A stretch of 64,000 nucleotides of DNA. It comes from Hypericum androsaemum (taxonomy: Eukaryota > Streptophyta > Magnoliopsida > Malpighiales > Hypericaceae). Numbering within the stretch: position 1 is the first letter of the stretch; the number at the start of each line of letters is the position of its first letter. The position numbers were made by a program, and so were the translations under genes. The DNA lies in NCBI GenBank assembly GCA_963995505.1, contig OZ023193.1, forward strand, positions 6,780,521 through 6,844,520, written 5' to 3'. Below the pieces are notes generated by a model. It saw only the letters and a program-made list of their open reading frames with translations. It was not told the origin of the DNA and searched no databases. Shown piece after piece: positions 18,646-53,699 of the stretch.

Positions 18646-19816
18646 GGCGAGAGAGGTTGTGCTGAAGAGGTTTGCTGCAAAGAGGGCTGATAGATTGAGT
18701 AGAGGGAAGAGGAGTGCAGAGGATGAAGATGACAAGGAGCAGCAGCTGGGCAGCAAATCCTCCACTTTTTCTTGTGTAATGGCTGACGCTCTCAAGGGTG
18801 ACGGTCTACAAAATACCTGTTCATCTTTAGAACTCATGCTTCCTCGACTTGTGAGGGAAGAAGTACAGCATGAATTATCCAAGCTAGGCCTTGTCCCACT
18901 TGCTGAAAGGCCTTCTGCCAAACGAATTGAAGGCCCATATGGAAGAAATCTGCAACTACATTTTAGGAACAATCTTTCTCGAACTCTTTTCACCGGAGCA
19001 AAAGTGGAGGGCGAGCAGGGTGCTGCAGTCCATGTTGTTCTGCTAGATGCTAACTCTGGTCGTGTTGTGACATCTGGTCCTGAATCTTCTATAAAGTTAG
19101 ATGTTGTTGTGCTTGATGGTGATTTCCAGTATGAAGATGATGAGGATTGGACACACAGAGAATTTCAAACTCGTGTTGTACATGAACGCAATGGACGGAG
19201 ACCATTGTTGACAGGAGATCTGCAGGTAGCTCTAAAAGAAGGGGTTGGTACATTAGGAGACCTTGTTTTCACTGATAACACGAGTTGGATAAGGAGTAGA
19301 AAGTTCAGGCTAGGCTTGAAAGTTGCCTCTGGATTTTTTGAGGGAATTCGTATCCGTGAGGCCAAGACTGAAGCTTTTGTAGTCAAGGATCACAGAGGCG
19401 AATTATACAAGAAACACTTTCCCCCTCTATTGAATGATAATGTATGGAGATTAGAGAAGATTGCAAAGAATGGTGTCTTCCATAAAAGGCTTAATAACCA
19501 TGAAATCTTCACAGTTGAAGACTTCTTGTGCCATATGGCCAAAGATTCAGCTAAGCTACGGAACATTCTAGGTGGTGTGTCAGATAGAGTGTGGTATACC
19601 ATCCAAGAGCATGCAAAGACTTGTGTCCTTGGTGAGAAGTTTTTTGCTGAACAGTATTTTGCATCCGGTTCTGTTTCAGATTTGCAGAAGTTGTTTGTTG
19701 ACTCGCTGGTGAAGAAAGAAAATGAGAATCAGATTGATGTCGTGGAATTTGATGGAAAGTCACATTTGAACTTGAAGCAAAGCAAGGGGCCAAGTGGCTG
19801 TAACAATGACTATCAA
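18646..19816 (+). other. CBP60 module of chimera A
   Basis: Matches the plant calmodulin-binding protein 60 family from its N-terminal third through the conserved DNA-binding centre: KRIEGPYGRNLQLHFRNNLS, VVLLDANSGRVVTSGPESS, LRLGLKVASGFF-type block, HRGELYKKHFPP, VWRLEKIAKNG, FTVEDFLCHMAKD. About 30 residues that usually lie between CVL and the QYY/QYF segment are missing. The family's C-terminal part, where CBP60a-f bind calmodulin, is absent. Confidence 0.9.
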
Positions 19817-22800
19817 GTAAAACCTTTCCTATTTTCACAAATTATCGCTTTTGTGTTTCCTGGGTGCTGATAACAATTCTCTGATCTCTACTTGGTAAGA
19901 TATCTAGAGAAAGTGTTATGTATTAATCAAAGATATTGAAATAGTCGATCATTATACTTTTTAGGTGATACACTTGTTGTGCGTCTCCAATGCGAATTTA
20001 AAAAGCTGTTTCTTGTTTCCTTAATTGTGGTTGTTGATGTTGTTGCTACCATCCCTCGAATCCTTGTGGGAGATAACATATAAGATGTCTTCTAGAGATG
20101 CTTAGGGATGGTTCTTGTTTCCTCAATTAGTGTTGATTTACCTACTCATCTAGCTAAAATATTATGATATAATCAATTAGGTAGAGTTCTTCGACCTTTT
20201 GAGCCATTATGTTGATTTTATTTCACGTGTGAATTAAATCTGGATGCAGGGGCTGGTAAATATGGAGGAAGTTCAGGGTGCGCACACTGTTGACTCCGCC
20301 GGGAGAAAAGACCGACCCAGCAAGGTCTGGACTGTGAAAGGTGTCCAGGACTGCCACATCCCCCACTCAGTCCGCACTGCCAGCAGGTTCTACAACCTCC
20401 GGGACCGCCCTGGCTGTCACCAGACCAGCAAGGCAGTCAGGTTGCTCATTGAGGTGGTCAAGAGCACCATTGATCAGTTTGCTGAGCTCCCTGCTTGGCA
20501 ACCCTCCGCAACCTCCGTCACGAAATCCCGAAGTGCCGCCGCCAATCAGCCATTCCGTAGCAAGGAAGATGAACCCCAGAAAAGTCAACAACAGCAAGAG
20601 CCAGAGCAGATTGGTTGTGGCAGCTGGCGGGATTTCAATTCTCTTGTAGATTTCTTCACCTTCCTCCACCAGCTCGATCCCTCCGCTGTTCACCACCCAG
20701 GTTCCAGTGTCCTTCGGCCATCGTTAGATTCTGACGCTATTGCTGATACCATCAAGTCCTTCTTCTCAATAGGTAGTAGCAGCAGTGGCGGGTCTCAGAA
20801 CTTGTTCCAGAGCCACCCAGTCCCCAGTTTGCTTCAGGTTTAATATGGCAGTTCATGAATTGATTACGCAATTCAGCTCAGGCTTGAGGTCTCAGACAAT
20901 TTTCTTCCACTTTTCCTTGCAGTATATCAAGGAAGTTCAGGACATACTCCTACACGTCTCCAGTATAACAAATATTGATCTAGGTGCTGATTCCTTGACA
21001 AGGATCCTTGGTATGAGCAAGCTCAAAGTTTATAATTTGTTTTGCAAAGTTCCAAAATCATTGCCGAGCATTTTCCAAGCGGAGAATTTTGTGGAGTTAC
21101 ACCTTCCACATTACAATCATCGACTAATTTGGGGTGGAAAGCTGGTAATACCTACTTAAGACCTTCTGAACTCTTGTTTCTTTCCACATGACTGACCAGC
21201 AATTGATCTGTGTGCAATTTTTTTATCACATGACAGGCTTTCGTCAATTTGCGGTTGATCAACCTCAAACACTCATTAAAGTTGATAACTCTTCCTGACC
21301 TATCCATGGCGCAGAAGATTGTGCATCTAAATTTACGAGGCTGTGTAAAGTTGATTCAAGTTTCATACATCCGGAACCTCGTCAAGCTAGAGGAGCTGAA
21401 TCTGAGCAACTGCGAAAACATTAAGATTCTTCCCAGTTTGATTGGTCTGCAGAATCTCAGAGAATTTTATCTTTCAGGGTGCTCAAATCTGAGGGAGCTT
21501 CCTCCATCTATCATAGCTCTTAATAGTCTCGTTGTCTTGGATCTCAAAAACTGCGCCCAGCTCTATGCACTTCCAAGGTTCACAAGTGGTTTACAGAGTC
21601 TTCAGAAACTTAATATCTCTGGTTGTACAAATATCTTGAGAAGCTTAGACATGAAGGGAAATAGAGAATCGTACCGATTATATGGGAGGTTCTTGGGCAG
21701 CACTATTTGTAAGTTGAGATATCTTCGCTTTTTCATGCTCACAACTCTCAAGTACTTTCTTTTTGTCTATTGCCTGAAAATTGTATTTATCTTATGTTAG
21801 CATCTATTAATAGCTGATATGCATATCCTAACCACTTGTGCTCCTATGGTTATGGGATAAGATTGACCATACCTAACATATAAATCATGGATCTGTTGGC
21901 ATGAATAGATACACTTGTATCTTTCATAGAAACATCAAGAAAAAGGAAAATCCGCAAACTGATAGCATCGATAATTTAACTGTTATATCGCCATTTTACA
22001 TTAAATTTTCATTCTAATCTCATGAGAAGGGAAAAATGTTAAAAGTGCATGGCAGCTTCAGACAGTTTGTAATTTTCCATAATCTTTTTTATGCAGAACA
22101 CCAACTAATGTAATTTATGTTCTGTTTCTATAGCAGGCGCATATAGAGATCTATCAACACCCGGGAGAGCTTCACAGTTTGTAGAAGCAGCTGCTGCCCC
22201 CGAACAGAAGGCAAACACATTGTTGGGAGGAAATTTTTGTTTATATTTGCTGCATCTTTTTCTTTCCCTAACAATTGTCTTATTTTTATGCAGAAATCTA
22301 CAACAAAAAAGGCCAAGAAAAATTCTGCTCCACAAGTTGTTCAAGTAGAGATAACCGAGGAAAAGGAATTAACAATTAACAACTTCAATAGGAAAGCAAA
22401 TAAGGAAAAGGAGGAGAGAAAAAGGAAATCTGTGGAACCAGCTGTGGCAACCTGTAAAGAAGTTCGAGTTAAGAGGAGTTGCAACGATCCAGATGATTGT
22501 GTCTCCATTATATGTCAACCTTTCCATGAGCCTGAAGCAGTTGAAAAGTTTTCAGGTGGTCAAGGTAGGGAGAGTAAGCTCATGGACTCTTCAGTTTCAG
22601 CTCCCAGGTCATCTGCTGTATTGGTGTATGGCCCCAATTTAACGGGTTCAACTCCTGAGGCTGTGGAAGAAGCAATTCTAGATTCTGGTTCTAAACTAAT
22701 CGGTGATACTGAGGTATTTTCACATGCCTTTCATCCCAATGCGAGTGATTGCAGTTTCTTGAACTTCTGTTCTTATATGCCTGTGCTTTTGCAGCCAGCT

Positions 22801-52900: not shown

Positions 52901-53699
52901 TGAAGCAGTTGAAAAGTTTTCAGGTGGTCAAGGTAGGGAGAGTAAGCTCATGGACTCTTCAGTTTCAGCTCCCAGGTCATCTGCTGTATTGGTGTATGGC
53001 CCCAATTTAACGGGTTCAACTCCTGAGGCTGTGGAAGAAGCAATTCTAGATTCTGGTTCTAAACTAATCGGTGATACTGAGGTATTTTCACATGCCTTTC
53101 ATCCCAATGCGAGTGATTGCAGTATCTTGAACTTCTGTTCTTATATGCCTGTGCTTTTGCAGCCAGCTCCAGCCAATCAGTCACCAAACTTGAATAAGAA
53201 TACATTATTAGGCCTAGCCATGGAAGATCCGACTAGTGAAGAAGGCGAGGATGTTGGACTTGGCAACTCTAGTGACCATCCCCGCAAGGAGTGCACCGAG
53301 AGAGTCCCATTGGATGTTAGCAAAACAGCAGCTATGTGTGACCCTCACAAGCTAGCTGAGAAGTCAAGTGATGGCGGCATGGAATCAAACACTGGAGTCT
53401 TCAATCACCAACCAAACGGAACCAAACCATTATCATCCTACGAAGAGAATGATGAGATCGATTGGCTGAAGAACGAGATTCAGAAACTCCAAGAACAACT
53501 GGCAGCTTCAGAGAAAAGACGGGATGGTTTCCGCGAGTGCTACGACTCCTTGGAGTTGGAGCTGTGGCCGCTTCGTGCTGAACTGGAGGTAGAACATGTC
53601 AACCTGACGGAGCAGAAGCAGAAGCAGGAAGAGTCTGACCTAGAGGCATCCAATGCCTGGGAGGATCTCAAGAAACTGGTTGCTCAAACAATATTTTGA
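48800..53699 (+). CDS. chimera B: CBP60-TCP-TCP-LRR-coiled-coil protein
   Basis: Exons 48800-49970 (CBP60, same 1171-bp length as in A), 50438-50926 (TCP-1), 51015-51509 (TCP-2 fused to the TNL linker), 51604-52075 (LRR), a small exon from 52501, 52662-53081 and 53163-53699 (tail). Phases fit at every settled border. The TCP domains are well kept, unlike in A. No TIR or NB-ARC is present. With the HSF-B3 exons joined upstream, the protein would reach about 1600 residues: HSF, B3, CBP60, TCP, TCP, LRR, coiled coil. Read alone, its first exon lacks a clear start, which favours the joined model. Inferred role: decoy or sensor that carries copies of immune transcription regulators on an LRR chassis. 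TNL-2 begins 1.7 kb downstream on the same strand. Confidence 0.78.
50438..50926 (+). other. TCP-1 module of chimera B
   Basis: KDRHSKVFTAKGLRDRRIRL, SVRTAIRFYNLQDRLGYYQP, SKAVEWLIKAAKTAVDQLDV. The basic region RDRRIRLS is intact, so DNA binding is plausible. Class II (CIN) type. Confidence 0.92.
51015..51509 (+). other. TCP-2 module fused in-exon to the TNL linker
   Basis: SKDGHSKVRTAGGIRDRRVR, LSAHTAILFYDIQDRLGYDR, PSKAADWLMEKSDAAIKVLD. Near 51390 the TCP exon (SGWDF) joins directly to the linker (KVHNLFWKVPRSLP). In copy A these parts are about 390 bp and one intron apart, so a deletion fused two exons here. Confidence 0.9.

What the first reader, a model, noticed from the sequence alone, without database searches (positions are those of the whole stretch)
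18646..53699. Two LRR proteins with CBP60 and TCP regulators in place of TIR-NB
Seen: in two places CBP60, TCP, TNL-linker, TNL-LRR and coiled-coil exons follow each other with matching phases and clean splice sites, and no TIR or NB-ARC. Known: NLRs can carry integrated decoys (RRS1-WRKY, RGA5-HMA); CBP60g/SARD1 and TCPs are immune regulators and effector targets. Inferred: a modular decoy/sensor family that dropped the nucleotide switch and may rely on the TNLs next to it. I know of no described family with this order.
Basis: partly seen in the sequence, partly recalled or inferred. Interest (0 to 1): 0.95.

Follow-up and report, generated by a model that had tools for sequence, protein, structure and literature searches.

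The report
Immune LRR genes with captured regulators
In a plant immune-gene cluster, two sister genes appear to have lost the usual immune-receptor switch and gained in its place copies of two immune regulators (CBP60 and TCP), and their sequence shows they have been kept as protein-coding genes, although no transcript or function has been shown.

Summary
Two paralogous loci, A (18646-23331) and B (48800-53699), each give one open frame when spliced at phase-compatible GT-AG sites: CBP60 (N and M domains), TCP (one module in A, two in B), TNL exon-3 linker, TNL exon-4 LRR, mini exon, coiled-coil exon (1178 and 1236 codons, no internal stop). No TIR or NB-ARC was found inside either locus. Linker and LRR exons keep the intron positions and phases of a neighbouring TNL, so TIR and NB-ARC exons have been replaced. 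The CBP60 exon is a processed retrocopy (six parental introns gone); its splice donor lies in former CBP60 coding sequence. Between A and B the aligned exons (TCP excluded) carry 226 substitutions and no indel, introns and flanks 115 and 14 (p = 4e-7); about seven stops are expected by chance, none is seen. So the frames are kept. One transcript spanning all modules is unproven; TCP acceptors are the weakest junctions. Best reading: NB-less, TNL-derived decoy/sensor subunits acting with a linked TNL. TCP and CBP60 are already known NLR-integrated domains and NB-less NLR partners exist, so this is a new variant. An oak gene model (TCP-TPR-IDD-LRR, no NB-ARC) is a possible parallel.

The parts
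18646..19816 (+). Locus A exon: CBP60 N and M domains, processed retrocopy; first in-frame ATG at 18779; donor TCAA|GTAAAA lies in former CBP60 coding sequence
   Evidence: Pfam; six introns of the C11 parent absent; parental donor-site DNA TATCAGGTAAAT; splice sites; ATG
20250..20837 (+). Locus A exon: CIN-type TCP module with degenerate basic region (24 of 40 conserved positions kept); weak acceptor
   Evidence: Pfam; TCP10 match E 1.5e-13; conservation count; splice phases 0/0
20923..21144 (+). Locus A exon: TNL exon 3 (post-NB-ARC linker), internally shortened
   Evidence: alignment with TNL exon 3; same acceptor and donor phase as in TNL1
21237..21708 (+). Locus A exon: TNL exon 4, leucine-rich repeats
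   Evidence: Pfam LRR; 41% identity to the TNL1 LRR exon; same intron position
22137..22180 (+). Locus A mini exon (44 nt), conserved in B
   Evidence: splice and phase model only; 2 differences, no gap against B
22294..23331 (+). Locus A last exon: basic stretch and C-terminal coiled-coil-like part shared with TNL1
   Evidence: 27% identity to the TNL1 C-terminal exon, E 1.8e-12; alignment; coiled coil judged by eye
48800..49970 (+). Locus B exon: CBP60 retrocopy; first in-frame ATG at 48933
50438..50926 (+). Locus B exon: TCP module 1, basic region kept (36 of 40 conserved positions); weak acceptor GATGAAG|G
51015..51509 (+). Locus B exon: TCP module 2 (35 of 40 conserved positions) fused in frame to a shortened TNL exon-3 linker
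51604..52075 (+). Locus B exon: TNL exon 4, leucine-rich repeats
52504..52547 (+). Locus B mini exon (44 nt)
52662..53699 (+). Locus B last exon: basic stretch and coiled-coil-like part, 94% identical to A as protein
31620..36299 (+). Neighbour TNL1: TIR, NB-ARC (P-loop GMGGIGKS, kinase-2 VVLDDV), linker, LRR, C-terminal exons; main candidate signalling partner (exons read one by one, gene not modelled)
   Evidence: Pfam; motifs; C-terminal homology
55425..59478 (+). Neighbour TNL3: TIR, NB-ARC (P-loop GMEGAGKS, kinase-2 changed to VVLHNV), linker, LRR, C-terminal exons without significant match to the coiled-coil exon of A
   Evidence: Pfam; motifs; tblastn

Best explanation
Loci A and B are two sister protein-coding genes made by replacing the 5' exons (TIR and NB-ARC) of a TNL with a retrocopied CBP60 coding sequence (CBP60b-like; that label is recalled) and one or more CIN-type TCP exons, while keeping the TNL linker, LRR and C-terminal exons in their old intron frame. 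Most likely they work as nucleotide-switch-less sensor or bait subunits: the CBP60 and TCP modules imitate immune regulators that effectors attack, the LRR and coiled coil hold the protein to a full-length TNL of the same cluster (best candidate TNL1, which shares the C-terminal coiled coil), and that TNL supplies TIR signalling when the bait is bound or altered. Shown here: module order, retrocopy origin, TNL exon homology, no TIR/NB-ARC found, long-term protection of the reading frame in both copies. Inferred: single transcript, decoy role, complex with a linked TNL.
For: Continuous phase-compatible frames in both loci. Frame protection: 0 indels in 2844 aligned exon sites with 226 substitutions against 14 indels (11 not multiples of three) in 1225 intron and flank sites with 115 substitutions (p = 4.4e-7); expected stops 7.0, none in 1 of 4000 trials. 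dN/dS A-B for linker+LRR+CC 0.52 (bootstrap 0.32-0.89). CBP60 fold positions: 52 of 54 (A) and 49 of 54 (B) columns invariant among nine CBP60 places are kept. TCP basic region kept in B1 and B2, 36 and 35 of 40. In TCP A/B1 the two gaps within 20250-20690 are 21 and 9 bases. Linker and LRR exon boundaries and phases equal those of TNL1; C-terminal exon homologous to that of TNL1. TNL1 adjacent to both loci with P-loop, kinase-2 and TIR motif. All three N-terminal Met codons of the C11 parent lost and an in-frame ATG gained in both copies. Precedent: CBP60 and TCP are NLR-integrated domains (PMC6709784, passages); CBP60b loss causes EDS1-PAD4-dependent autoimmunity and it was proposed as a guardee (PMC13354941 and PMC10778643, passages); RXL, an NLR without NBD/HD1, works with a linked full NLR (PMC11933841, passages); CIN-TCPs are bound by phytoplasma SAP11 (abstracts in the listing).
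Against: No transcript evidence. TCP acceptors are weak and coincide with an in-frame ATG in all three modules, so TCP could start on its own. An in-frame stop lies shortly after the CBP60 donor in both loci and after the TCP donor in A. No upstream first exon and no TATA box within 700 bases was identified. Selection on the CBP60 exon is loose: A-B dN/dS 0.72 with a bootstrap interval that includes 1 (0.51-1.16), branches 0.54 in A and 0.86 in B; single exons LRR (0.20-1.04) and CC (0.25-1.28) also include 1. The TCP module of A has lost its basic-region signature. A, B and the TNLs are in tandem on one strand. TNL0 has a stop in its linker exon and TNL3 a changed kinase-2 and no significant coiled-coil match, which leaves one clear partner. 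The guardee idea is itself unsettled: knocking out 11 up-regulated NLRs did not rescue cbp60b, and the quintuple mutant is only partly rescued by removing ETI (PMC13354941 passages). No relative with this order was found in the searched database, so conservation beyond this genome is untested.
Confidence: 0.47

Rival explanations
1. Chimeric but a nuclear regulator rather than a sensor: the CBP60 and TCP modules still bind DNA or partner proteins (for example at ICS1-type promoters), and the LRR-CC part tunes or titrates that activity; effect dominant-negative or regulatory.
For: Predicted CBP60 N domain resembles Rel, STAT, Runt and velvet DNA-binding domains; B1 and B2 TCP basic regions are near intact; CBP60g, SARD1 and a TCP4-like protein all act on ICS1 (PMC9164164 passages).
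Confidence: 0.21
2. Separate neighbouring genes: a retro-CBP60 gene, an intronless TCP gene and an LRR-CC gene, each transcribed on its own; the matching phases are chance.
For: In-frame stops just after the CBP60 donors and the TCP donor of A; an ATG at the start of every TCP module; weak TCP acceptors.
Against: All junctions of both six-exon models are phase compatible; the exon between TCP and LRR in A keeps the TNL exon-3 acceptor and phase; in B, TCP2 and the TNL linker are one continuous exon with no stop between, which ties TCP to the LRR gene without any splicing assumption.
Confidence: 0.18
3. Decaying debris: retrocopies and TNL fragments that happen to be open.
For: One TNL of the cluster has a stop; loose dN/dS in CBP60 and TCP modules; open frames elsewhere in this genome that look like retroelements also hold CBP60 pieces.
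Against: No indel and no stop in exons despite 226 substitutions between the copies, while introns and flanks carry 14 indels; in-frame length changes against the parent.
Confidence: 0.08
4. Coding genes whose modules serve no immune role yet, kept alike by gene conversion between A and B.
For: Identity is 86% in the 5' part and 95% in the 3' part and dS falls 0.189, 0.111, 0.051 from CBP60 to LRR to CC, a pattern that conversion would give.
Against: Conversion does not explain the lack of indels and stops in the diverged CBP60 exon.
Confidence: 0.06

Closest known systems
RRS1-class sensor TNLs with integrated TCP, CBP60 or WRKY domains (A. thaliana pan-NLRome; OG205 TCP-B3-TIR-NB-LRR-Zf), PMC6709784
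   Same: Same two transcription-factor families joined to TNL parts, next to TNLs
   Different: OG205 keeps TIR and NB-ARC and sits head-to-head with an executor; A and B have the modules in place of TIR and NB-ARC, stacked at the N terminus, in tandem orientation
Wheat RXL of the RXL/Pm5e pair, PMC11933841
   Same: NLR-derived protein without NBD/HD1 that lies beside a full NLR
   Different: RXL keeps a signalling CC and a WHD remnant, has no integrated domain and is in head-to-head orientation
Quercus robur LOC126716054 isoform X3 (P0135)
   Same: Stacked TCP, TPR and IDD zinc-finger modules followed by an NLR-type LRR with no NB-ARC by Pfam
   Different: LRR is of the RPS2-like type; no CBP60; a database gene model, not tested here
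CBP60 genes at C11 and C3 of this genome (CBP60b-like by recall)
   Same: N and M domains; 78% and 80% identity over the N-domain exon
   Different: Window copies are intronless over this stretch, have no third CBP60 domain, and lack 25 residues after EKF(F/Y) in frame
CIN-class TCP factors (TCP10 structures 7vp2 and others; TCP4 by database names)
   Same: TCP domain; B1 and B2 keep 36 and 35 of 40 conserved positions
   Different: Only 126-196 residues, joined to TNL exons; A has lost the basic-region signature

Membership tests
NLR (NB-LRR receptor) | NB-ARC domain | tested here: not met
   No NB-ARC by Pfam in the ten open stretches scanned; tblastn of the NB-ARC exons of TNL1 and TNL3 (E up to 1e-3) has no match inside A or B
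NLR (NB-LRR receptor) | LRR domain of NLR type | tested here: met
   LRR_4, LRR_R13L1-DRL21 and others over cut-off; homologous to the LRR exons of TNL1 and TNL3
TNL | TIR domain | tested here: not met
   TIR exons of TNL1 and TNL3 match only the three TNLs in 264 kb
TNL | Exon 3/exon 4 boundary positions and phases | tested here: met
   Same acceptor and donor positions and phase 0 in A, the third relative and TNL1; in B the exon-3 acceptor is gone, its donor and the exon-4 acceptor are kept
NLR with integrated domain (NLR-ID) | Non-canonical domain within an NB-ARC-bearing NLR | tested here: not met
   Foreign domains present, NB-ARC not found; works like an ID carrier at most
CBP60 family | Calmodulin_bind N and central (M) domains | tested here: met
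   PF07887 and PF20451 over cut-off in both
CBP60 family | C-terminal domain after the central domain (recalled as a usual feature) | tested here: not met
   No third CBP60 domain in the exon by Pfam; the sequence after the donor was not scanned on its own
CIN-class TCP | TCP domain with conserved basic region | tested here: met
   Met in B1 (36/40) and B2 (35/40); not met in A, which keeps 24/40 and reads QDCHIPHS where TCP10 has RDRRVRLS
Paired sensor-executor NLR | Head-to-head gene pair | tested here: not met
   A, TNL1, B, TNL3 are all on the + strand
Integrated decoy | Module is bound or modified by an effector and this triggers immunity | not testable with these tools
   Needs binding and cell-death assays

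The most novel reading that the evidence does not exclude
A class of plant immune proteins built only of stacked copies of immune regulators on an NLR-derived LRR-coiled-coil scaffold, with the nucleotide switch discarded: multi-bait sensors that recruit complete NLRs in trans. Here one bait arose by retrotransposition of a CBP60 of the type proposed as a guardee, and became a spliced exon through a donor hidden in its own coding sequence; the oak TCP-TPR-IDD-LRR protein would be an independent case.
Probability: 0.3. Interest if true: 0.86.

Novelty: new variant of a known kind. Interest (0 to 1): 0.62.

Why it matters
Integrated decoys are read as clues to what pathogens attack, but surveys that start from NB-ARC genes would miss proteins of this kind. 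If A and B are expressed, they show that TIR and NB-ARC can be exchanged for baits while the LRR scaffold stays, name a CBP60 and CIN-TCPs as jointly monitored targets in this plant, and give a clear route (retrocopy plus hidden splice donor) by which a guardee candidate becomes part of an immune receptor cluster. It makes the open question of whether CBP60b is guarded by a TNL directly testable.

Tried and rejected
Rejected: chance open frames. Rejected: a simple one-to-one relation of TCP modules between A and B; dS for TCP is 0.534 (A/B1), 0.382 (A/B2) and 0.386 (B1/B2) against 0.189 for the CBP60 exon, so at least two TCP modules probably existed before the duplication and were reshuffled.
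Full report
What is there. The window lies at G000:C14:6780521-6844520 of a 385-Mb, 29-contig plant genome. Self-comparison shows one duplicated block: A at 18530-23424 and B at 48690-53789, 86% identical in the 5' part, 76% in the TCP part and 95% in the 3' part. Pfam on the open stretches gives CBP60 N and M domains, TCP, and LRR; the last exon has no family over its cut-off. Splice models with compatible phases give 1178 codons in A and 1236 in B without an internal stop. From the first in-frame ATG, which is inside the CBP60 exon at 18779 and 48933 with the context GTAATGG in both, the proteins would be 1133 and 1191 aa. 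B has two TCP modules, and the second is fused in one exon to the TNL linker.

Where the modules come from. The CBP60 exon matches the CBP60 genes on C11 and C3, whose exons are separated by introns; the six introns that the C11 parent has over this stretch (four seen in the part of the C3 parent that was fetched) are missing from A and B. It is therefore a processed retrocopy. Its length changes against the parent are whole codons (a 25-residue loss and smaller ones), and no stop has arisen. Its splice donor, CAA|GTAAAA in A and CAG|GTAAAA in B, sits at the parental Tyr-Gln|Val codons, where the parent reads TATCAGGTAAAT, that is, inside former coding sequence. Synonymous distances to the parents (0.31-0.36) exceed that between the parents (0.146) and that between A and B (0.189), so the capture is the oldest of these events. 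The TCP modules are of CIN type, closest in the PDB to TCP10; the best-scoring TCP genes elsewhere in the genome are on C1 and C8. The linker and LRR exons of A keep the acceptor, donor and phase of exons 3 and 4 of the neighbouring TNL1, and the last exon is homologous to that of TNL1 (27% identity). Thus what stands before exon 3 in a TNL, TIR and NB-ARC, has been replaced. In this genome 22 places match the CBP60 family and 44 the TCP family, lower bounds by the tool's own note; reading the two lists together, the only places where they lie within 300 kb of each other are A and B.

Is it coding. In the A-B alignment of CBP60, linker (from 21026), LRR, mini and coiled-coil exons, 2844 sites show 226 substitutions and no indel; in introns and flanks 1225 sites show 115 substitutions and 14 indels, 11 of them not multiples of three. 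Fisher p = 4.4e-7. The TCP modules are not in this count because they cannot be aligned end to end; in the alignable part of A against B1 (20250-20690) the two gaps are 21 and 9 bases. Random substitution of the same number would give 7.0 stops on average and none in 1 of 4000 trials; for the CBP60 exon alone 4.6 and a probability of 0.0085. dN/dS is 0.72 for CBP60 with an interval that includes 1 (0.51-1.16) and 0.52 (0.32-0.89) for linker, LRR and coiled coil together; branch estimates for CBP60 are 0.54 in A, 0.86 in B and 0.52 on the part between them and the parents. Constraint is present but loose. Of 54 columns invariant among nine CBP60 places of this genome, A keeps 52 and B 49; A and B differ at 7 of these 54 against 30 of 107 variable columns, p = 0.046. 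Of 40 conserved TCP columns, B1 keeps 36, B2 35, A 24.

What speaks against one gene. The TCP acceptors are weak and each TCP module has an in-frame ATG at its start; stops follow soon after the CBP60 donor in both loci and after the TCP donor in A. No first exon or TATA box was found. On the other side, in B the second TCP module and the TNL linker are one unbroken exon, which ties TCP to the LRR part without any splicing assumption.

The cluster. In 264 kb around the window there are three TNLs with TIR and NB-ARC exons (at about -22.9, 31.6 and 55.4 kb in window coordinates), A and B, and a third relative at 77.1-81.1 kb (locus L040) that has linker, LRR and coiled-coil exons, shares the shortened linker of A and B, has the LRR closest to that of A (50%), and has no TIR or NB-ARC match. 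TNL1 keeps the P-loop, kinase-2 and TIR SSWCLDEL motif; TNL3 keeps the P-loop and SPWCLDEL, but its kinase-2 reads VVLHNV; TNL0 (-22.9 kb) has a stop in its linker exon. So TNL1 is the one clear signalling candidate. All these genes are on the + strand. Nearest coiled-coil relatives elsewhere are two places on C20 at 9.42 and 9.44 Mb; no CBP60 or TCP match is listed within 1 Mb of them.

Is it new. Neither module is new as an integrated domain and NB-less NLR partners are known, so I file it as a new variant. The stacked order CBP60-TCP-LRR-CC without TIR and NB-ARC was not found among the 120 listed hits or the 17 (checked again), nor in the listings of the paper searches. The oak gene model P0135 (TCP 115-264, TPR about 315-423, IDD zinc fingers 482-621, RPS2-type and other LRR 842-1212, no NB-ARC) suggests that such proteins may have arisen more than once.

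Noticed in passing
L040:3086-7112 (about 77.1-81.1 kb in window coordinates, outside the window): Third NB-less relative: an open exon of 272 aa with LDLNL and LGLTL motifs (no Pfam, no other copy found in the genome), an LRR exon, then shortened TNL linker, LRR and coiled coil.
   Followed up: partly
P0135, Quercus robur LOC126716054: Database protein with TCP, TPR, IDD zinc fingers and an RPS2-type LRR but no NB-ARC by Pfam: a possible parallel case in oak.
   Followed up: partly
P0121, Carya illinoinensis I3842_09G119000: Database protein with three TCP stretches in a row, followed by a piece of sugar transporter that may be a gene-model run-on.
   Followed up: no
L023, L024, L025, L028: Long open frames that look like retrotransposon gag by eye (not tested) contain a piece of CBP60 (residues about 164-252 of the query), so CBP60 coding sequence seems to have been captured elsewhere in this genome too.
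   Followed up: no
[not shown]
   Followed up: partly
window 18646-23331 and 48800-53699: dS between A and B falls along the gene (0.189 CBP60, 0.111 LRR, 0.051 CC), as gene conversion of the 3' half would give.
   Followed up: partly
L034-L038 region, about -22.9 to -18.3 kb in window coordinates: TNL0, 91-98% identical to TNL1 exon by exon, has a stop in its linker exon.
   Followed up: partly
window 538-728 and 5256-5443: Pair of 86.5% identical repeats of about 190 bases flanking open frames that look like a copia-type element by eye.
   Followed up: no
G000:C20:9423677-9424222 and 9441590-9441964: Closest coiled-coil exon relatives outside this cluster (55% and 51% identity), the first with two stops; context not read.
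   Followed up: no
window 29791-30319: Tandem array of a 22-base unit, about 24 copies.
   Followed up: no
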